Source: a virus. From it: a stretch of 35,371 nt of DNA. The notes beneath the pieces were generated by a model, which made no database searches, was not told the origin of the DNA, and saw nothing but the letters and a program-made list of their open reading frames with translations. Shown here one piece after another: positions 6,542 through 34,494 of this stretch (the first letter of the stretch is position 1; every line of letters starts with the position of its first letter). The stretch lies in IMG/VR virus record IMGVR_UViG_3300029913_000065, positions 1 to 35,371 of that record; one strand, written 5' to 3'. The position numbers were made by a program, and so were the translations under genes.

Positions 6542-6832
6542 TTATACGCTGGGACGGTCGTGACAGCAAGGGCAGTTATCGTCATAGGTATCATCGTCAT
6601 CTTCCCTGTGGAACCGGGAACATACTGCCTTCTCCGACTTCTTCCTATCGTTTCTGCTCCGGCCTTCGGCATAGCCCACAAGGTTAGCGATGAGAACCCC
6701 GACAGCAATCCTCACACAGTGCTGGGGTGCGATAAATACGAGGAGGTAGTACGGCAAGAGGATACCAAGTGCTGAGAAGAGAAGTGATACGGGACGAAGG
6801 CTGTCCCTGAGCGTGTCTTTCCAAAAACCCAT
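6542..6832 (-). CDS. Small membrane protein with acidic Cys-rich tail
   Basis: Unrecognised 96-residue protein. The ATG at 6832 has AAGGAG upstream at 11-base spacing. A basic/amphipathic N-terminus precedes a hydrophobic stretch (about residues 16-35), a short break and a second hydrophobic stretch (about 40-55), then a charged region. The tail reads EDDDDTYDDNCPCCHDR, a possible metal-binding end. It belongs to a minus-strand block inserted in the head gene cluster. Function unknown; a holin-like or membrane-modifying role is possible from size and topology alone. Confidence 0.7.
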   Translation of the reverse strand: MGFWKDTLRDSLRPVSLLFSALGILLPYYLLVFIAPQHCVRIAVGVLIANLVGYAEGRSRNDRKKSEKAVCSRFHREDDDDTYDDNCPCCHDRPSV

Positions 6833-6847
6833 AATGTTTGTTTCTCC

Positions 6848-6958
6848 TTAGTCGTCCAGAATGTCTTTCTCATAAGAGCCCTCAGCCGACTCACAGTCAG
6901 GGTCTTCATATGCATCACGGTGAACGTCGCTCAACTGCGAACGGAAACTCGACTTCAC
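6848..6958 (-). CDS. Tiny acidic protein (36 residues)
   Basis: The minus-strand frame starting at GTG 6958 (or TTG 6961) with AAGGA just upstream ends at TAA 6848-6850. The sequence ends EGSYEKDILDD, acidic and protein-like. The stop sits just upstream of the AAGGAG of the next minus-strand gene, which supports real coding. The 5' end overlaps another open frame that follows the gene at 7012-7281, so this could be the third segment of a frameshifted gene instead of an independent one. Confidence 0.45.
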   Translation of the reverse strand: MKSSFRSQLSDVHRDAYEDPDCESAEGSYEKDILDD

Positions 6959-7011
6959 CAAATCCTTGATAGCCTACGCGGCGTGCATCCCGGATGCGGT
7001 TCTCCCCCGCG

Positions 7012-7281
7012 TCACCGACCACCCAGCTCGGTGAGCCGGAAGGTCATGATGAAGACGGAGAACGTCGGATTTACTCCCTTTACTCCCAAGTCCCGGTTGG
7101 CAATGTCCAGTAGCTCCTTGGCCTCATCCCAATTCCTGAACAACTGGGGTGAAGGGGCACCAAAAAGTGCCCTCATGTCTTTTGTGGTTACATAGCCAGT
7201 GAACTTCTGGCGGCGGTGTGGCTTCTTGATAGAGTTGTCCTCGTAGACGACCGTGTAGAACACATCGGATGGCTGATTCAT
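7012..7281 (-). CDS. Hypothetical 89-residue protein, possibly frameshift-extended
   Basis: ATG 7281 has AAAGGAAAT upstream. The protein starts MNQPSDVFYTVVYEDNS and reads as a small mixed alpha/beta protein with no recognised motif. It terminates at CGG TGA C. The +1 frame immediately past this stop stays open for 32 codons to a stop at 6915-6917, with protein-like composition (segment VGYQGFGEVEFPF). The stop-plus-C context resembles the poor-termination context of the bacterial RF2 frameshift, so a longer 121-residue form is possible. An indel in the sequence would look the same. Confidence 0.65.
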   Translation of the reverse strand: MNQPSDVFYTVVYEDNSIKKPHRRQKFTGYVTTKDMRALFGAPSPQLFRNWDEAKELLDIANRDLGVKGVNPTFSVFIMTFRLTELGGR

Positions 7282-7378
7282 ATATTTCCTTTTGACTAGA
7301 CTAGACGTAAAGCTGGGCTTTCGCCCTCACAGTAGTAGATACCAAGCTTTGCGGGAACTCGATAAAGAAAAAACTTCG

Positions 7379-8056
7379 CTAGGAGTCTAGTACCTCGTCT
7401 AGGGTCAGCCCAATTTCTTCTTCGACAATCTCAGACATTCTCTTCCAGTGTAGGCACGCCTTACGGTGCCCACCGTATACGCCTTTGGTAACTTGCTCAA
7501 ACTCATTCCCGCAGTCAGGGCATAGGTAGTCCTTCAGTTTCTTGTTTTCAATGTCATTGACGCGACGGGCTACCAACGCCTGTTTACTACGTCTAGCTTG
7601 GCCTATAGGTGTGGTCTCATCCCACCAAGCAGCCATTTTCTTCCGCTGAATTATAGGCTTTGGCTTACCCTTGAAGAGGGCTGACGCAACTGCTCTCTGT
7701 TTTTTAGACGGAATCCGACCCATGGCCTTTTGTCTAATTTTTTCACGCACCTCCTCAGTTCCGGTAACCCCCTCACCTCCATAGGTCATATTGTACCCAT
7801 ATTTGGTGCTGTGAGTACCTAGTAACAAAATCCACATCTTCTCCAACTCGCTCAACTGTTCTGAGTTATTACATTCTGCGATAGTCTGTACATGAAAAGC
7901 GTCAACCCCATACTTTCGAATAGCTCGGTATAGATGGTAGGGCAACCCCATCTTTGCGTTCTGAAGGTGGGTTTCCCACCGTCCCTTGACGGTTTTCGAG
8001 GTTTTTCCAATGTAGGCTTTGCCGTTTATCGTGTTGGTAACTAGGTATATGAACAT
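7379..8056 (-). CDS. GIY-YIG homing endonuclease, antisense to the split decoration gene
   Basis: A 225-residue GIY-YIG family endonuclease. MFIYLVTN (1-8) and KAYIGKT (13-19) form the two halves of the motif. R26 in GRWETH is the likely catalytic Arg, E72 in LEKMWI the likely metal-binding Glu, and GYNMTYGGEG follows as usual. A NUMOD3-like segment (EEVREKIRQKAMGR) and a C-terminal zinc finger (CPDCGNEF...HRKAC) would bind DNA. I chose ATG 8056 because family members start close to FIYL; a GTG at 8077 is the alternative. Neither has a clear ribosome binding site. It lies about 200 bp upstream of a group I intron, on the opposite strand. Confidence 0.88.
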   Translation of the reverse strand: MFIYLVTNTINGKAYIGKTSKTVKGRWETHLQNAKMGLPYHLYRAIRKYGVDAFHVQTIAECNNSEQLSELEKMWILLLGTHSTKYGYNMTYGGEGVTGTEEVREKIRQKAMGRIPSKKQRAVASALFKGKPKPIIQRKKMAAWWDETTPIGQARRSKQALVARRVNDIENKKLKDYLCPDCGNEFEQVTKGVYGGHRKACLHWKRMSEIVEEEIGLTLDEVLDS

Positions 8057-8260
8057 ACTAAGGTATAGGTAGTTCACTTATTTATTATGGACAGAAAAAC
8101 GGGCATAAAATTAAAATTTAATGTAAGTCTAGCTTTCTCCCAATACCCACCCCATAGGTATGTGAAGTAAGTCACTGCTCTATAGTTCAACGGTCGGTCT
8201 CCTCGACTAAGAATTGGAGTGAGGGCTAATTCAAAACTTCTACATGGAGAAAAAGTCAAA

Positions 8261-13726: not shown

Positions 13727-16198
13727 ATGGCTTCCTTTATCACCATCTCACTCGGCAACATCAGCTACCCGCAAACTAAAGTGGCGATTAGCGTACCCGA
13801 ACTTGTGAGCCAGACGAATTCTTTTAGTATCAAGCGTCGTCCCGGCTGTACTCCCTCCCTGCTCGACTCGAACCCGAAGCAGTTGTTTCTTCGCTACAAC
13901 GTTAAGTGCCGTGAGTCCTACTCAGACCCTGCCGGTCACGACGTGACGGTGAAGTTTGACGTGGACAAGGTGGAGGATACTCAGAACGCCAACGACCTTG
14001 ATGTGAAGCTTAATTGTAGCTGCCCTGCCCATCTCTACTGGGGGGCTCAGTGGAACCTTCACCAGCGAGATGCCCTGCTGGGTGAGCCACGCCCGGAACT
14101 TACTGCTCCTACGAAGCGGCTTGACCTACGTAAGAATTTTGTTTTATGCGTAGCCCCCGGAACCCGCGTCCTGATGGGGGATGGTACTGAAAAACTGATT
14201 GAAAATGTACAGGTGGGGGATTGGGTTGTCACTCATAAAGGGCGTGCTCGTAAAGTTACTCATGTTTCTGGACGACCTGCACATGTTGGAGAGATAGCTC
14301 GGGAGGTTAGAGCTAAAGGGGCATCCGAACCCCTGATTGTATCTAAAGAGCACCCACTAGCTGTTGTGCGAGGAAATGAAACCTGCTTCTGTGGCTGTAA
14401 AGGTTCACTGCCCCTCGGTTATAGGGGGGTAAAGTGGGGGCGTAAGTTCTTGCCGGGTCACCACCGTAATCGTCCTTCTCGAAAACTCTCTGAGGAAGCA
14501 ATAGCTGAGATACATTCAAGTATAGAAAATCAGTACACTCTGGCTGAGAGGTATGGGGTTAGTCAGGGCACTATATCCCGAGTGCAAAACCGGGTCGCCC
14601 ATGTGGGCGATCCTGAAATTGAAGACTGCTCACAAGGCAAGTTGGGGTGGGTTGAATCGGATAAATTGGAGTTTCACGAGTACCTGTTTTTCCCAAAAAT
14701 ACAATGGGATGGAGGCACTGAAGTTGATTCCAACTTTGCTTCTTTGCTGGGGTATTATTTGGCAGAAGGTAGCCCAATATATAGAAAGGGAATCCCGAAT
14801 AAGGTCAAGTCAGGCAGACCCACCACAAAAGGAGTGGTATGCGATATAAACGGGGTAACCTCTCGTGTATGGGGGGTAAACTTTACGATTAATCAGGACG
14901 AGGCCGAAACTCTTGGGCAGGATATCCAGTCCAAATTGTTTGGGGTTCTCGGGGCTGAAGCTGATATTCAAATTAAGTTTCGCAACTATGGGGGGAAAAA
15001 GTGGCTCAATGTCATTGTCAATGACGGTAAGTTTGCGGCTAAGATGATTCAATTGGCGGGGTGCGGCTCCCTTACGAAGCGCCTCGCTCCTGATGTGTTT
15101 AAGTGGAACACAGAGGCCATTCAAGCCCTTGTGTCATCTTACGCTTTGGGGGATGGGCATTTTGATGCTTCGGGGCAACAATATGTGTATTCAATCTCTC
15201 CTCATGTTGTATCCCAAATATCTACCATGCTGTATAGCATGGGTATTTGGCATGGGCGTCTCCACCAAGATTGGCGGGGTAAAAAGGAGGGGGTTAGAAA
15301 GAAAAACAGGTATTTCCGCCTTTACTGGAATTACAAACAGTACCCCCAGCTTCTTGATTTGATGAGGGGTAGGTTGCGTACTCATGTTATCGACCAGTTG
15401 AATACAGGTCTTCCTAACCAAGAAACCGATGTATGGCAAGATGGGTTTACTAGAGTGCTTCACTCAGCGAATGATGTTGATGCCCCGGAATATTTTCACG
15501 ATTTGACCGTGGATGAAGATGAATCATTTATAGCTAATGGTGTGGTCGTACACAATTGCAAGCACGAAAAGGCTGTGCTGGAACGTATCCTACCCTCTGT
15601 GCAGCACAACATTCAGAACATTATCCGTGAGAATACGGTTAAACGGAACAAGGACAAACAACAGCCCACGGAGAAGTCGGAGAAACTGAAGAAGGAACAG
15701 GACGCGATGAAGAAGCGTCAGGAGATAAAGAAGCTCCGCGAGAAGAAAAACAAGAGCATCCAACAAAAGCTCATCGATGCCCTGCGTGAACAGGAAGAAG
15801 GTAAGAAGGCTCCCGAAGAGGAAGAAGTCCCCGGTGTTGTCGAACGTAATGAGAACGCGACAGAACCCTTGGTTGTGGACACGCCGAAGACTGAGGATGT
15901 GTCCAAGGAAGAGCCGGAGGGGGAAGACGACCTCAACGCTATGGTGGAGAACGAAGAACATAAGCTTGAGCAACAGGAGCACGACAAGATAAAGAAGGAA
16001 CCCCACTTGCATAAGGGGCTCCCCTATGAGACTGAGGCTGAGAAGGCAGAGCATGGACACAACGTTCCAACGGACGACGACCTGTTGAGCACCATGCGTA
16101 AAACCAAAGAACAGGTTGAACAGAAGATGAAGAAACGCAAGCAGACTTCACTAGAGATGAAACTGCTGTCTATGTTGGTGGGGGATGACGATGTTTAG
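13727..16198 (+). CDS. SWIM-type zinc-motif virion/assembly protein interrupted by an intein
   Basis: The 823-residue precursor contains a 470-residue intein (residues 141-610). The spliced protein has 353 residues. Its N-terminal half carries CSC (C97, C99); joining the exteins creates CKH (precursor C611, H613). Together they give CxC...CxH, the SWIM zinc-finger pattern, with a spacer of about 41 residues. The C-terminal half is a highly charged helical region (KKEQDAMKKRQEIKKLREKK) followed by acidic linkers and a conserved-looking basic helix, as in assembly or DNA-bound proteins. Function unknown. The stop overlaps the next gene's ATG at 16185, so the two are probably co-translated. Confidence 0.8.
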   Translation: MASFITISLGNISYPQTKVAISVPELVSQTNSFSIKRRPGCTPSLLDSNPKQLFLRYNVKCRESYSDPAGHDVTVKFDVDKVEDTQNANDLDVKLNCSCPAHLYWGAQWNLHQRDALLGEPRPELTAPTKRLDLRKNFVLCVAPGTRVLMGDGTEKLIENVQVGDWVVTHKGRARKVTHVSGRPAHVGEIAREVRAKGASEPLIVSKEHPLAVVRGNETCFCGCKGSLPLGYRGVKWGRKFLPGHHRNRPSRKLSEEAIAEIHSSIENQYTLAERYGVSQGTISRVQNRVAHVGDPEIEDCSQGKLGWVESDKLEFHEYLFFPKIQWDGGTEVDSNFASLLGYYLAEGSPIYRKGIPNKVKSGRPTTKGVVCDINGVTSRVWGVNFTINQDEAETLGQDIQSKLFGVLGAEADIQIKFRNYGGKKWLNVIVNDGKFAAKMIQLAGCGSLTKRLAPDVFKWNTEAIQALVSSYALGDGHFDASGQQYVYSISPHVVSQISTMLYSMGIWHGRLHQDWRGKKEGVRKKNRYFRLYWNYKQYPQLLDLMRGRLRTHVIDQLNTGLPNQETDVWQDGFTRVLHSANDVDAPEYFHDLTVDEDESFIANGVVVHNCKHEKAVLERILPSVQHNIQNIIRENTVKRNKDKQQPTEKSEKLKKEQDAMKKRQEIKKLREKKNKSIQQKLIDALREQEEGKKAPEEEEVPGVVERNENATEPLVVDTPKTEDVSKEEPEGEDDLNAMVENEEHKLEQQEHDKIKKEPHLHKGLPYETEAEKAEHGHNVPTDDDLLSTMRKTKEQVEQKMKKRKQTSLEMKLLSMLVGDDDV
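14147..15556 (+). mobile_element. LAGLIDADG intein with HTH insertion
   Basis: The intein starts at Cys141 (CVAPGTRVLMGDG) and ends ...VVVHN (His609-Asn610), with Cys611 as the +1 nucleophile. This fits class 1 protein splicing. Block B-like sequence is SKEHPLAVV. The endonuclease part has two LAGLIDADG motifs, LLGYYLAEG (about 340-348) and SYALGDGH (about 472-479), so it should be an active homing endonuclease. Between block B and the endonuclease lie a Cys module (CFCGCKGSLPLG...GHHRNR) seen in many phage homing proteins and a helix-turn-helix (TLAERYGVSQGTISRV), probably for DNA binding. The block F/G region reads YFHDLTVDEDESFIANG. Confidence 0.93.
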
Positions 16199-31067: not shown

Positions 31068-31205
31068 CACATTGTTACCAAAAAGTTCAACTATTTCACT
31101 TTAGTGTGCGCTCACAATCCCCCAAAAGCATATAGGGATAGAACCCTCTAACCGGTAACGTTGTGCCGCTTATCCGCTAAAAAGCTCTTAACCGGTAACA
31201 TTGTG
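31068..31205. promoter_or_regulatory. Operator-like repeats in a divergent control region
   Basis: Two direct copies, GGTAACGTTGTG (31154-31165) and GGTAACATTGTG (31194-31205), lie exactly 40 bp apart inside a longer shared block that includes TAACCGGTAAC and YCGCTT. The CCGGT core is near-palindromic. A third, inverted copy is CACATTGTTACC (31068-31079). They sit between the divergent minus gene (30865-31029) and the first early promoter. Likely binding sites for a phage or host regulator; an origin-type iteron set is the alternative. Confidence 0.6.
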
Positions 31206-31221
31206 TCGCTTTCCCGACATC

Positions 31222-31278
31222 GTAAAAAATTACCGAAATTCTTGTTCAACTTCGTGTCACGTCAGGTATACTGTACCC
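31222..31278 (+). promoter_or_regulatory. Early promoter 1, leaderless type
   Basis: GTAAAAAATT (31222-31231), TTGTTC (31242-31247), 19 bp, TATACT (31267-31272), 6 nt, ATG 31279. No Shine-Dalgarno sequence fits between the expected start of transcription and the ATG. Same layout as the promoters at 33241 and 34178. Confidence 0.8.
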
Positions 31279-31875
31279 ATGGCAATCAAGACACATACCG
31301 CGAAGTCCCTGATGGCTCTGGCGATGGCTGAGCAGAAGCAGGTCGAGGCTCTCGACAAGGAAATCAAGCGTATGACCAAGCCCCTTGAGGCACAGATTGC
31401 TGTGACTCAGGCAAACATGAACGACCTCATCGAACATGCCCATCGCCTCACCCTTGCCAAGAAGAAGCTCGACTGGAAGTTCCTGCTGGCAGCGTACCCT
31501 ACCTCGGACGCTAAGTACACAGCTTTCGTCAAGACCCTCACGGACTTAGGTCTGACGGCGGTATTCTGTGGCAACGTCTGGAAGGATACCCAACAACGGG
31601 TCATTACGATTGACTTGCAACGTAGCCCTGAGGGTCTCAAGCACAACGAGCGGCAGCGTCAGGCGATAAAGACCCTGCTACTCTATGTCACCAAGAATGA
31701 CTTTGGGCACAAGCACTTCGGCGTCTTTACGTGTGATGAGTGTACCGAAGTGGAGCAGTTCTACTTCACGGGGGAGTATTGGGTCATCTCCACCCGCTTC
31801 GGTAGTTCGCGCACGTACAAGAACATGAAGGAAGCCTTCGCCTACATCAGCCAGAACCATTACTACCGGAGTTAG
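31279..31875 (+). CDS. Early protein with coiled coil (198 residues)
   Basis: Start at ATG 31279, six bases after the -10 element; the open frame continues upstream to 31201 but would cross the promoter. Residues 10-60 form a coiled coil (AEQKQVEALDKEIKRM, AQIAVTQANMNDLIEHA). The rest is a mixed domain with Trp/Phe and one CDEC motif (TCDECTEVEQFYF, about 152-164). Not recognised. It is the first gene of the early block and the next gene starts four bases after its stop with GGAG upstream. Confidence 0.75.
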   Translation: MAIKTHTAKSLMALAMAEQKQVEALDKEIKRMTKPLEAQIAVTQANMNDLIEHAHRLTLAKKKLDWKFLLAAYPTSDAKYTAFVKTLTDLGLTAVFCGNVWKDTQQRVITIDLQRSPEGLKHNERQRQAIKTLLLYVTKNDFGHKHFGVFTCDECTEVEQFYFTGEYWVISTRFGSSRTYKNMKEAFAYISQNHYYRS

Positions 31876-31878
31876 GTC

Positions 31879-32745
31879 ATGACTACAAAGACACGTAAGC
31901 CGAAGGCACCCAAGGCACCCAAGGCACCTGAGACCTACGAGGATTTCCGCGTCCACGAGTGGGGTTCATTCCAGCGTGACATCCGCGACCAACTTGCTCA
32001 GGTCAACCCCCCCAACTACGACTTCAAGGTTGGTGAGAAGGTTCGCATCGGCAACCTCGTGGACTGCACGGTCGAAGAGGTTCTCATGGACGGCAAGGTG
32101 ATTCACATCAGCCGCTCAGACGTGGGTCAGGAGTATGGCAAGCCGTTCGACAACAACCGCCGTCTCCCGCTCTATCGCTGGTGGCACGATGTCGAGCCTC
32201 TCGTCACCGAAGAAGACACCAACTTTGGCCGGGAGTCCCTTCAGACCTCCTACCTCTCTACCTCGCTGGACTCACTGGTTCACATGGCGTATCACCGGGG
32301 CTTCATCACATCGCCGGACTACCAGCGTGACTACGTGTGGTCGCTCGAAGACAAGCAGCGTCTCATCCACTCCATCATGGACAGGACGGACATCGGCAAG
32401 TTTGTGTTCCTCGAACGTGACGAGGACTACCGTCTGGAAGTCATCGACGGCAAGCAGCGTATGAACGCCATCATCGAGTTCATGGAGGGCCGCTTCACGT
32501 TCAAGGGCAAGACGTGGTTCCAGTTCAGCCGGGGCGACAAGCACTCGTTCACGGACTTGGGTGTGCAGTACGCCAAGCTGCAAGCCAGCCGGGTCAAGCG
32601 GTCGGACGTTCTCTGGCTGTTCCTCTCGGTCAACGTTGGCGGTGTACCTCAGACCGAAGAGCACATCGCCAAGGCACGCAAGCTGTACGAGGAAGCCCTC
32701 GTGGAAGCCATGGCTCACGACGTTCTGGAGAACACCAAATGCTAA
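31879..32745 (+). CDS. DUF262 / ParB-like nuclease-fold protein
   Basis: A 288-residue protein. The N-terminus is Lys/Pro/Ala-rich. Residues 45-110 look like a small beta domain. The DUF262 signature follows: PDYQRDYVW (146-154), LIHSIM, IGKFVFLE and VIDGKQRMNAI (188-198), the D-G-x-Q-R motif of ParB/GmrS-like folds, then NVGGVPQTEEHI. DUF262 proteins bind nucleotides and occur in GmrSD-type modification-dependent restriction enzymes. Here it stands alone, without the DUF1524 HNH half. In a phage early operon it could act in nucleotide hydrolysis, host takeover or defence against rivals; role not known. Confidence 0.8.
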   Translation: MTTKTRKPKAPKAPKAPETYEDFRVHEWGSFQRDIRDQLAQVNPPNYDFKVGEKVRIGNLVDCTVEEVLMDGKVIHISRSDVGQEYGKPFDNNRRLPLYRWWHDVEPLVTEEDTNFGRESLQTSYLSTSLDSLVHMAYHRGFITSPDYQRDYVWSLEDKQRLIHSIMDRTDIGKFVFLERDEDYRLEVIDGKQRMNAIIEFMEGRFTFKGKTWFQFSRGDKHSFTDLGVQYAKLQASRVKRSDVLWLFLSVNVGGVPQTEEHIAKARKLYEEALVEAMAHDVLENTKC

Positions 32746-32912
32746 TCCGGTTCACCATCGCCCTGTGGGCCGCATTCTTCTACGCCGACTACCACCTGAT
32801 GGTCAGCCGGTTCCGCCTGAAGTCTTTCGCTGGTAGCATGGTGCTACTCGCCGCACACATCTTCGTGTTCTTCGACGCCCTGTACCTCACCGTACTTCAA
32901 TTCCCGAAATAG
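32739..32912 (+). CDS. Small membrane protein (57 residues)
   Basis: ATG 32739 overlaps the end of the DUF262 gene by seven bases, with GGAG eight bases upstream. Two hydrophobic stretches (IALWAAFFYADYH and GSMVLLAAHIFVFFDALYL) separated by a basic loop (SRFRLKSF) give a two-span membrane protein. Function unknown; small early membrane proteins in phages often alter host envelope or exclude other phages. Confidence 0.7.
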   Translation: MLIRFTIALWAAFFYADYHLMVSRFRLKSFAGSMVLLAAHIFVFFDALYLTVLQFPK

Positions 32913-32921
32913 GAGACCACC

Positions 32922-33026
32922 ATGAAACTCTTCTACAAAGAAACACCCTCGATGTCTCGCGTCATCGCGGACGGCATAGCCTTGGGTGCCATCCTTGGCA
33001 GCATCGCCTTCCTGCTGGTGGGCTAA
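32922..33026 (+). CDS. Single-span mini membrane protein (34 residues)
   Basis: ATG 32922; the AGGAG Shine-Dalgarno overlaps the preceding TAG stop. Basic N-terminus (MKLFYKETPSMSRV) followed by one hydrophobic segment (IALGAILGSIAFLLVG). The stop is three bases before the next ATG. Function unknown. Confidence 0.65.
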   Translation: MKLFYKETPSMSRVIADGIALGAILGSIAFLLVG

Positions 33027-33028
33027 CC

Positions 33029-33244
33029 ATGTCCCTCAAGACCTCACGCTCCCTAGCCGTCCATGGTGACTGCCGCCCTATGTTCCTCATGGGGTATGGC
33101 CGGGACATCCTGACCGCCAACTACATCGACTCCGGTATTGAGTTCGGCATCCTCGATGGCCGGTACTGGGAGTACGACCCCCGTTACCTCGCCCGTCGCC
33201 GGGAAGCCGCCCAAGACCGTGCCATGGAAGCGATGGACAGGTAA
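33029..33244 (+). CDS. Hypothetical early protein (71 residues)
   Basis: ATG 33029 directly follows the previous stop (TAACCATG). A soluble, Arg- and Tyr-rich small protein (SGIEFGILDGRYWEYDP, then a basic helix RYLARRREAAQDRAME). Its stop codon lies inside the A-rich start of the next promoter (33241). Not recognised. Confidence 0.7.
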   Translation: MSLKTSRSLAVHGDCRPMFLMGYGRDILTANYIDSGIEFGILDGRYWEYDPRYLARRREAAQDRAMEAMDR

Positions 33245-33297
33245 AAAATTCCTAAAATAGTTGTTCGAAAGACCTGTCGCCCCGGTATACTGTGGGT
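33241..33297 (+). promoter_or_regulatory. Early promoter 2, leaderless type
   Basis: GTAAAAAATT (33241-33250), AAAATAG, TTGTTC (33261-33266), 19 bp, TATACT (33286-33291), 6 nt, ATG 33298. The element begins within the stop codon of the upstream gene. Confidence 0.8.
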
Positions 33298-33774
33298 ATG
33301 AAGAAGTCTACCGCACTCCAAATTACCGCCTCCAAGATTGAAGTCTCGGCCAACAGCCACTCCAAGACTGGTTACTACGCCAGCCACCGGGTATGGGGCA
33401 TCCTGCCGGGTTGCCGGAAATCTCAGCTTCTCACCATTACCGCCATGACTGGCTACATTTGGGTCAAGGCCCTGTACAGCTACAACGGGTCGGCTCACAT
33501 CAAGCCTGAGGATTGGGCCGCGTTGCTCAATGCCAGCCCGGTCAAGTCGGACACGCTCCAGTCCTTCAAATACGACGTGACGCCTGAGGTTGAGGCTGCT
33601 GCCCGTGCGGAAGTTCTGAGTATCACGACCTGCCCTGCGGTCACCGACACTAGCCGTCTCCACCCGGATTACAAGCTGACCTTCAACCCCATCGAGGGCA
33701 TCCGGGCCACCTACTACCCTTCCATGAACGCTGACCGCAAGGCCAGCCTCAACAGCCAGATTATGCACGCCTAA
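33298..33774 (+). CDS. Hypothetical early protein (158 residues)
   Basis: ATG 33298 sits six bases after the -10 element; a GTG two codons upstream (33292) would lie within the -10 to +1 region and is unlikely. The protein is soluble and mixed alpha/beta (QITASKIEVSANSHSKTGYY, LLTITAMTGYIWVKAL, KPEDWAALLN). No recognised family. The first gene behind promoter 2; its mRNA should lack a leader and a Shine-Dalgarno sequence. Confidence 0.75.
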   Translation: MKKSTALQITASKIEVSANSHSKTGYYASHRVWGILPGCRKSQLLTITAMTGYIWVKALYSYNGSAHIKPEDWAALLNASPVKSDTLQSFKYDVTPEVEAAARAEVLSITTCPAVTDTSRLHPDYKLTFNPIEGIRATYYPSMNADRKASLNSQIMHA

Positions 33775-33778
33775 TCCC

Positions 33779-33910
33779 ATGCACATACTTGGTCTTTATC
33801 TCACGATTACCGCCGTTCTGGTCGCCCGTAGGGGCTCTGTAGAGGATGTTTGCTACCGAGCCCTCCACCCAACCCGCCTCAGCCGCCTGAAGCCCCGCCA
33901 CACCCGCTAG
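33779..33910 (+). CDS. Small basic protein (43 residues)
   Basis: ATG 33779 four bases after the previous stop, without a clear Shine-Dalgarno sequence, so translation would rely on coupling. A short hydrophobic N-terminus (MHILGLYLTITAVLV) and a basic tail (RLSRLKPRHTR). Its TAG stop merges with the AGGAG of the next gene, as seen for other genes in this block. Function unknown. Confidence 0.45.
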   Translation: MHILGLYLTITAVLVARRGSVEDVCYRALHPTRLSRLKPRHTR

Positions 33911-33918
33911 GAGCCACC

Positions 33919-34206
33919 ATGAAACAGCCCGTCGCAGTCCCCGCCCCGTTTGGATGGACACCAGCCCCGCAGTGGGCGAAAGACGCCAAGGATGCCGACC
34001 TCGCCGACGCAGCCGCTGAGACCTCCACCATGCCGGATGTCCTCCGCAAGTTCCTCACCGGCCTGTCCGACGATGACGCTGAGCAGGTTTGGGCATATCT
34101 GGACGGCAGCAACGGCCTCGAAGAGATTGATGTCCTTTGCGAGTCCCACCCATCATGGTCGCCAAGAACGGCGGACAGTAAAAATTTCCAAAATAGTTGT
34201 TCATAA
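33919..34206 (+). CDS. Hypothetical early protein (95 residues)
   Basis: ATG 33919 with AGGAG at five-base spacing; the longer frame from 33850 would overlap the preceding gene. The protein is acidic in the middle (AKDADLADAAAETS, LTGLSDDDAEQVWAYLD). Its last nine codons lie inside the A-rich upstream block of promoter 3, so promoter and coding sequence overlap and the C-terminus may be under dual constraint. Not recognised. Confidence 0.65.
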   Translation: MKQPVAVPAPFGWTPAPQWAKDAKDADLADAAAETSTMPDVLRKFLTGLSDDDAEQVWAYLDGSNGLEEIDVLCESHPSWSPRTADSKNFQNSCS

Positions 34207-34233
34207 CCGTGGTTAGTCCCGTATACTACAGAC
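34178..34233 (+). promoter_or_regulatory. Early promoter 3, leaderless type
   Basis: GTAAAAATTTCC (34178-34189), AAAATAG, TTGTTC (34197-34202), 19 bp, TATACT (34222-34227), 6 nt, ATG 34234. One base shorter in the A-rich block than promoter 2. Confidence 0.8.
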
Positions 34234-34494
34234 ATGGCAAACGTGAACGAAACCCGAGCCCGTAAGATTGCGAACAAGCTTCTCGCCGCGATGGCGACCT
34301 ACCACCGCTTCATCCCCATCGCCGACATCGACGCCATCCTGAATCAGGCTGGTCTCAAGGGCATGGAAGAGGGAATCTACTGCGGTCGTGAAGGCCGGGT
34401 AAACGAGCAGGTCGGTGTCAACACTTGGCTCTGCCTGTCGTGGTACAAAATGGAAGTATCGGGCGACTATGAAATCACCGCCTACGTGAGCTAA
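34234..34494 (+). CDS. Hypothetical early protein (86 residues)
   Basis: First gene behind promoter 3; ATG at the predicted transcription start. N-terminal basic helix (ETRARKIANKLLAAM), then a small domain (FIPIADIDAILNQAGL, NTWLCLSWYKMEVSGDYEI). Soluble, no recognised family. The next ATG follows two bases after the stop (TAACCATG). Confidence 0.75.
   Translation: MANVNETRARKIANKLLAAMATYHRFIPIADIDAILNQAGLKGMEEGIYCGREGRVNEQVGVNTWLCLSWYKMEVSGDYEITAYVS

What the first reader, a model, noticed from the sequence alone, without database searches (positions are those of the whole stretch)
31222..34236. Family of three early promoters that predict leaderless mRNAs
Three sites share an A-rich block starting GTAAAAA, TTGTTC, 19 bp, TATACT, and exactly 6 nt before an ATG (31279, 33298, 34234). 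Transcription normally starts 6-8 nt after a -10 hexamer, so the mRNA would start at or next to the ATG with no Shine-Dalgarno sequence. Other genes in the same block use AGGAG sites, so the first gene of each unit would be translated differently from the rest. The 19-bp spacer is longer than the usual 17 for the main sigma factor, so a different sigma or a phage factor may read them.
Basis: partly seen in the sequence, partly recalled or inferred. Interest (0 to 1): 0.78.

Follow-up and report, generated by a model that had tools for sequence, protein, structure and literature searches.

The report
Phage promoters fused to start codons
A soil phage and some relatives place promoters so that the messenger RNA should begin exactly at the start codon, with no ribosome-binding leader, and another relative has at the same spot a leader that is little more than the ribosome-binding site.

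Summary
In detail: three copies of TTGTTC-N19-TATACT-N6-ATG, none in shuffles. The window is part of a 183,684-bp phage record, G002, with a family of 16 candidate sites (held-out tests both ways). Eight have ATG exactly at N6; five of these open ORFs of 86-199 codons, three do not.

A relative, G013, has its own family with another -35 (CTAGCC), the same 19-bp spacer, and ATG at N6 in 7 of 15 sites. The base before the ATG is a pyrimidine in 40 of 40 such starts in four phages, against about half of control starts, as expected if transcription starts at that A. At orthologous promoters leaderless starts and Shine-Dalgarno leaders replace each other.

Leaderless mRNAs are thus well supported by sequence; no RNA was measured. 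'Early' has no evidence. The reading factor is open; a divergent sigma-like protein of the clade is a candidate. Leaderless genes with a -10 box about 12 bp upstream are a known kind; the repeated, swappable fusion looks like a new variant.

The parts
31222..31241 (+). A-rich block upstream of site 1 (UP-element-like)
31242..31247 (+). -35-like TTGTTC, site 1
31267..31272 (+). -10-like TATACT, site 1 (19-bp spacer)
31279..31875 (+). Predicted leaderless gene 1, 198 aa; matches phrog_7208 (unknown function, E 2e-9)
31879..32745 (+). Next gene of the unit, 288 aa, GGAG upstream; relatives in 12 viral loci, two of them this same phage
32922..33026 (+). Small gene with AGGAG upstream, contrast to the leaderless starts
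33241..33260 (+). A-rich block of site 2; its first bases include the TAA stop of ORF 33029-33244
33261..33266 (+). -35-like TTGTTC, site 2
33286..33291 (+). -10-like TATACT, site 2
33298..33774 (+). Predicted leaderless gene 2, 158 aa; its G013 ortholog also starts at N6
33919..34206 (+). Gene with AGGAG upstream whose 3' end overlaps promoter site 3
34178..34196 (+). A-rich block of site 3
34197..34202 (+). -35-like TTGTTC, site 3
34222..34227 (+). -10-like TATACT, site 3
34234..34494 (+). Predicted leaderless gene 3, 86 aa; its G013 ortholog is SD-led from an equivalent promoter

Best explanation
The three sites are promoters of one phage-specific family: an A-rich block, a -35-like element, a 19-bp spacer, then G-TATACT. 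RNA polymerase opens the DNA at TATACT and starts 7 nt after it, at the A of the ATG, so the first gene is carried on a leaderless mRNA and translated from its 5'-terminal AUG, while several other genes of the block use Shine-Dalgarno sites. Elsewhere in the genome promoters of the family stand before RNA genes and SD-led genes. Some relatives keep the geometry while the -35 and -10 letters drift, and exchange AUG at +1 for GGAGG at or just after +1. Shown by sequence: the family, the spacing, the N6 position, the pyrimidine at -1, the ortholog swaps. Inferred: that they are transcribed, the exact start, leaderless translation, and the reading factor (most likely the phage's own divergent sigma-like protein, about 0.5; otherwise the host's main sigma).
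For: Three exact sites, 0 in shuffles. In G002 TTGTTC-N17..21-TATACT occurs 6 times, all with 19 bp, against 0 for the reversed pattern. Held-out training in both directions recovers members of the other group. ATG with ORF>=60 at N6 after TATACT: 5 in G002 (other offsets: mean 0.23, largest 2) and 7 in G013 (mean 0.30, largest 2, p 3e-8); the word and offset were fixed by the finding before G013 was seen. Words picked after the fact show the same in G019 (TAGAAT N6, 10; other offsets mean 1.25, largest 6) and Tunturi_5 (TATTA[CG] N5, 15; mean 0.82, largest 3). -1 pyrimidine 40 of 40, against 69/134, 32/66, 104/186 and 160/281 control starts. Orthologs: window gene 33298 at N6 in both phages; window gene 34234 at N6 in G002 but SD-led from the same promoter place in G013; two further genes at N6 in G013 and SD-led in G002 or G021. 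In G021, 26 of 32 sites have GGAG or GAGG at N6-N8, 16 of these with ATG at N15-17. In G002 one site leads into a permuted tmRNA and two precede a tRNA and RNase P RNA array.
Against: No RNA or protein data. In G002 half of the 16 sites lack ATG at N6, and 3 of the 8 with it open only 8, 13 and 30 codons, so ATG may partly be an initiation-site preference. The exact letters are not found beyond this phage: 7 matches in 16 relative records against 7 in the reversed control. G023 and G026 show no clear peak. The window, G001 and G002 are one phage, as are G021 and G027, so independent cases are fewer than records. Window 31279 has AGGT 12-15 nt upstream that could act as a weak SD if transcription began further up; its distant G013 relative shows no such promoter in the 75 bases before any of its four possible starts.
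Confidence: 0.8

Rival explanations
1. Same promoters and leaderless mRNAs, but read by the host's main sigma factor helped by the A-rich block (UP element), not by a phage factor.
For: -10 TATACT is close to a normal -10; the A-rich block lies directly upstream of the -35. A presumed host relative has -10-like words before ATG most often at N7 (29; mean of other offsets 10.0, largest 21) with 16 at N6, and 3 of 3 Acidobacteria genomes have leaderless genes (PMC3160421, passages).
Against: Spacer 19 and -35 TTGTTC. Upstream of acidobacterial-type 16S genes TTGAC[AC] has spacers 15-18 only (1, 15, 12 and 7 hits in 78 loci, range tested 15-21; not shown to be the rRNA promoters, and 6 of the named cultured strains gave none). 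0 of 10 acidobacterial genomes hold the pattern with N6-ATG. The -35 and -10 letters drift between phages. The host group itself is inferred.
Confidence: 0.4
2. Real promoters, but the start point leaves a short or normal leader, and the ATGs are reached by a weak SD, S1-type binding or coupling with the upstream gene.
For: Window 34234 starts 27 nt after the stop of gene 33919-34206; window 31279 has AGGT upstream.
Against: Start fixed at N6 in two phages and -1 pyrimidine in 40 of 40; in G021 the SD itself starts at N6-N8 in 26 of 32 sites, so the start point cannot lie much further downstream.
Confidence: 0.12
3. The ATG at N6 is only a preferred initiation sequence; translation begins elsewhere.
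For: 3 of 8 N6-ATG sites in G002 open only 8-30 codons, one of them leading into tmRNA.
Against: The other 5 open 86-199 codons in G002, and 6 of 7 open 94-501 in G013; window 33298 has no other in-frame start in its first 45 codons and aligns with its G013 ortholog from residue 7 on.
Confidence: 0.05
4. A 19-bp promoter switched on by a MerR-type DNA-distorting activator.
For: Spacers of 19-20 bp are typical of such promoters (recalled).
Against: I see no conserved palindrome in the spacers (by eye); no activator was sought.
Confidence: 0.03

Closest known systems
TA-led leaderless bacterial genes (Zheng et al. 2011, PMC3160421; passages seen)
   Same: TANNNT about 12 bp upstream of the start codon, no SD in the mRNA; reported in Acidobacteria (3 of 3 genomes, mean 13.3%)
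   Different: Here in phages, with a -35-like element at 19 bp and an A-rich block, repeated as a family, and swapped with SD starts at orthologous promoters
Lambda cI leaderless mRNA (cI named in PMC9031893, lambda in PMC3160421; passages seen)
   Same: Phage mRNA starting at the AUG
   Different: There one transcript (recalled); here a promoter family spread over the genome
phiKZ-group phages (PMC5312081; passages seen)
   Same: Large phages with promoters at a fixed distance to the start point; the paper says phage transcripts are 'often leaderless'; phiKZ late promoters are TATG
   Different: phiKZ TATG starts at the G and is read by a phage multisubunit polymerase; a search with Pfam RNA_pol_Rpb2_6 found none in G002 and 5 other records
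Tunturiibacter phage Tunturi_5 (PP885688; PMC11924767, passages seen)
   Same: Nearest named phage by terminase (45.5% over 64%); sigma-like homolog; TATTA[CG]-N5-ATG family
   Different: Different -10 word and N5; the word promoter does not occur in the paper's main text

Membership tests
TA-led leaderless genes | TANNNT about 12 bp upstream of the start codon | tested here: met
   TATACT begins 12 nt before ATG at all three sites
TA-led leaderless genes | No Shine-Dalgarno in the upstream region | tested here: met
   Longest SD match in the 15 nt checked: AGGT at 31279 (weak), GGT at 33298, none at 34234; all would lie outside the predicted mRNA
TA-led leaderless genes | 5' end of the mRNA at the start codon | not testable with these tools
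   Needs 5'-end mapping; the -1 pyrimidine bias supports it
Housekeeping sigma-70 promoters | TTGACA-like -35 at 16-18 bp | tested here: not met
   Spacer 19 in all 6 exact copies; standard scan at chance level
UP element | A/T-rich tract directly upstream of the -35 | tested here: met
   A-rich block of 19-20 nt before all three; the comparison with the consensus is recalled, alpha-subunit binding is untested
Sigma factor (G002 6783-8099) | Sequence match to Pfam Sigma70_r2 | tested here: not met
   0 of 6 records including G002; the control search rings in 10 of 14 genomes
Sigma factor (G002 6783-8099) | Sigma-2/sigma-4 fold | tested here: inconclusive
   All 50 listed VIA-align rows are, by title, sigma factors or RNA polymerase transcription complexes (top Z 6.2, 89 residues, 3.2 A), but Z is under 8, mean pLDDT is 63, and Foldseek E for the full-length model is not significant
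Sigma factor (G002 6783-8099) | Homology to an annotated phage sigma factor | tested here: met
   36% identity, E 5e-34 to Tunturi_5 gp3, whose own name is only an annotation

The most novel reading that the evidence does not exclude
A clade of large phages, probably of Acidobacteriota, encodes its own divergent sigma that reads promoters with a 19-bp spacer whose start point is fused to the translation signal. Each promoter is one cassette: start transcription here, and either AUG or GGAGG is the first thing in the mRNA. Lineages flip individual genes between leaderless and 5'-terminal-SD starts without moving the promoter, which would give the phage a separate translation channel from most host and late genes.
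Probability: 0.3. Interest if true: 0.75.

Novelty: new variant of a known kind. Interest (0 to 1): 0.55.

Why it matters
Leaderless translation is mostly studied on single genes or host-wide. Here one promoter architecture carries leaderless starts in some phages and a leader that is almost only a Shine-Dalgarno in another, at orthologous genes: a natural experiment on the cost and benefit of a leader. The nearest named phage, Tunturi_5, was isolated on a cultured host (PMC11924767), so the prediction can be tested. It also warns that gene callers can misplace such starts: Tunturi_5 gp303 is annotated 36 nt inside its N5 ATG, while gp313 is annotated at its N5 ATG (the only two such sites whose annotation I compared).

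Tried and rejected
Exact motif in relatives: TTGTN20-22TATACT gave 7 matches in 16 records and 7 in the reversed control, so the letters are not conserved, only the geometry. TTGTTC-N17..21-TATACT was absent from the 10 other records found through the 31879 gene. The 17 other contigs with GTAAAAA...TTGTTC...TATACT in the viral collection were not examined and had no control.

T4-like late motif TATAAATA: in 0 of the 178 upstream regions of G002. A GTATTA class (CAGTATTAT) exists in G021 and G002 and was not resolved. Searches with window genes 31279 and 33298 gave only the same phage. A UvrD search of bacterial genomes gave no relative. PDB sequence search and Pfam on the sigma-like family gave nothing convincing. 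The p-values for G019, Tunturi_5, G021, G027 and the host use words chosen after enrichment was seen; only G002 and G013 were tested with a word fixed beforehand. The 16-site matrix is self-trained; in an earlier round the best simulated score was 11.0, in the last 10.2.

Literature: leaderless in phages was searched; in their listings I saw no such promoter family. Passages only were seen of PMC3160421, PMC5312081, PMC9031893, PMC11924767 and PMC5397173; PMC4178840 is not held.
Full report
OBSERVATION. The three sites are as described. The pattern with spacers of 17-21 gave three matches, all with 19 bp, and none in 100 shuffles. Site 2 begins at the stop codon of ORF 33029-33244, and site 3 overlaps the end of gene 33919-34206, so there the promoter fills the gap and leaves no room for a leader.

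THE GENOME. The window is a 35,371-bp IMG/VR record. It matches G002 (183,684 bp) at 99.99% over 35,359 bp; G001 (97,064 bp) holds the same three sites. These are one phage, not independent evidence. In G002 the pattern occurs 6 times, always with 19 bp, with 0 in the reversed control. A position matrix that ends at the -10, and so ignores everything downstream, gave 16 sites above 23 bits; the next real site had 9.8 and the best simulated score in that round was 10.2, 11.0 in an earlier one (self-trained). A matrix from the three window sites alone ranked 108121, 108258, 31781 and 105130 next, then chance-like sites; a matrix from five other sites recovered all three window sites, with 31781 among them.

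WHAT FOLLOWS THE SITES IN G002. ATG stands at N6 in 8 of 16. Five open ORFs of 198, 158, 86, 122 and 199 codons; three open 30, 13 and 8. The last of these, 108911, leads into a permuted tmRNA. Of the eight without ATG at N6, 105130 leads into a strongly folded RNA (z -3.8) and, some 600 nt on, a tRNA with CUA anticodon; 179688 and 179933 precede a tRNA and RNase P RNA array; 145028 and 31781 precede SD-led genes; the rest were not followed. By the coordinates, none of the 16 lies in the blocks of long genes at 37-82, 111-142 and 152-167 kb.

RELATIVES. A terminase search gave 21 loci; whole sequences of six further IMG/VR records and of Tunturi_5 were read. G021 and G027 are near-identical where they overlap and count once. 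In G013 (terminase 66% identical) a family with CTAGCC-like -35, aaaa, 19 bp and TATACT has 15 sites; ATG is at N6 in 7, with ORFs of 129, 110, 501, 94, 137, 424 and 10 codons. In G021, 26 of 32 sites with cGTGG-TATACT carry GGAG or GAGG at N6-N8, and 16 of these also ATG at N15-17: the mRNA would begin with or next to the Shine-Dalgarno itself. G019 has TAGAAT-N6-ATG 13 times with ORF>=40 (next best offset 7) and Tunturi_5 TATTA[CG]-N5-ATG 15 times (next best 3). G023 and G026 show no clear peak.

START POINT. At these fused starts (ORF>=40) the base before ATG is C or T in 40 of 40 (5, 7, 13 and 15 in G002, G013, G019 and Tunturi_5), while control starts give 69/134, 32/66, 104/186 and 160/281. 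The three G002 sites with shorter ORFs also have C or T. Bacterial RNA polymerase prefers a pyrimidine at -1 and a purine at +1 (recalled), so the bias marks the A as +1. It was not used to define the sites.

ORTHOLOGS. Window gene 33298 has a G013 ortholog (49%) that also starts at N6. Window gene 34234 has an ortholog (66%) whose promoter lies in the same place but continues GTGGAGGAAACACCATG. G013_55050 is at N6 in G013 and SD-led in G002; in G021 its counterpart has GGAGG at N6 with an unclear start. G013_68596 is at N6 in G013 and SD-led in G021. Window gene 31279 has only a distant relative (26%) in G013, whose possible starts show no such promoter in the 75 bases before them: a result against conservation for that gene. 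The G002 genes at 89914 and 167244 had no convincing relative in the seven other genomes.

WHO READS THEM. Upstream of acidobacterial-type 16S genes (78 loci) TTGAC[AC] has spacers 15-18 only: 1, 15, 12 and 7 hits, and 0 of 10 acidobacterial genomes hold the phage pattern with N6-ATG. The host group is inferred from Tunturi_5 and is not proven. A presumed host relative has its own leaderless-type peak, 29 at N7 and 16 at N6, against a mean of 10 and a largest other value of 21. All seven relatives read carry a homolog of the protein at G002 6783-8099, which is 36% identical to the annotated sigma of Tunturi_5. Pfam does not see it, but all 50 rows of the structural second look are, by title, sigma factors or transcription complexes (top Z 6.2). 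Since host sigma is highly conserved (recalled) while -35 and -10 letters drift from phage to phage, I favour the phage sigma, at about even odds.

VERDICT. The leaderless prediction is well supported by sequence and conservation but unmeasured. The kind is known (PMC3160421, PMC5312081, passages); the fused, repeated, swappable form was not seen in the listings named in Tried and rejected.

Noticed in passing
L053:821-1143 (+), G002 180821-181143: RNase P RNA, bacterial class A (179.6 bits), inside a tRNA array of the phage. In one search the listing showed no paper plainly on RNase P RNA in phages.
   Followed up: partly
L049:8488-8888 (-), G002 108488-108888: Permuted tmRNA with tag ANSNVALPIAA, directly after a family-like site at 108911.
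   Followed up: partly
L049:4437-4510 (-): tRNA with CUA anticodon (ARAGORN calls it Pyl), a possible amber suppressor; recoding was not tested.
   Followed up: no
L049:4970-5093 (-): Strongly folded RNA (-56.4 kcal/mol, z -3.8) right after promoter 105130; no Rfam match at that place.
   Followed up: partly
window 31149-31176 and 31189-31216: Two 28-nt direct repeats (TAACCGGTAAC...TTGTG), 40 bp apart, just upstream of site 1; their core occurs only there in G002; operator-like.
   Followed up: partly
window 13727-16198; L044:9113-11932; L052:13416-16835: Intein or LAGLIDADG domains in a window protein, in the terminase and in a ribonucleotide reductase.
   Followed up: no
L061-L076 (Tunturi_5), e.g. 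record 45409 and 218497: GGGTATTA heads the list of upstream words (29 of 328 genes); by eye it often sits in the loop of a hairpin, at times with a T-run after it.
   Followed up: partly
G021 and G002, CAGTATTAT: A second promoter-like word: 20 copies in G021 and 6 in G002 (reversed word 3 and 0); some copies in G021 have ATG at N5.
   Followed up: partly
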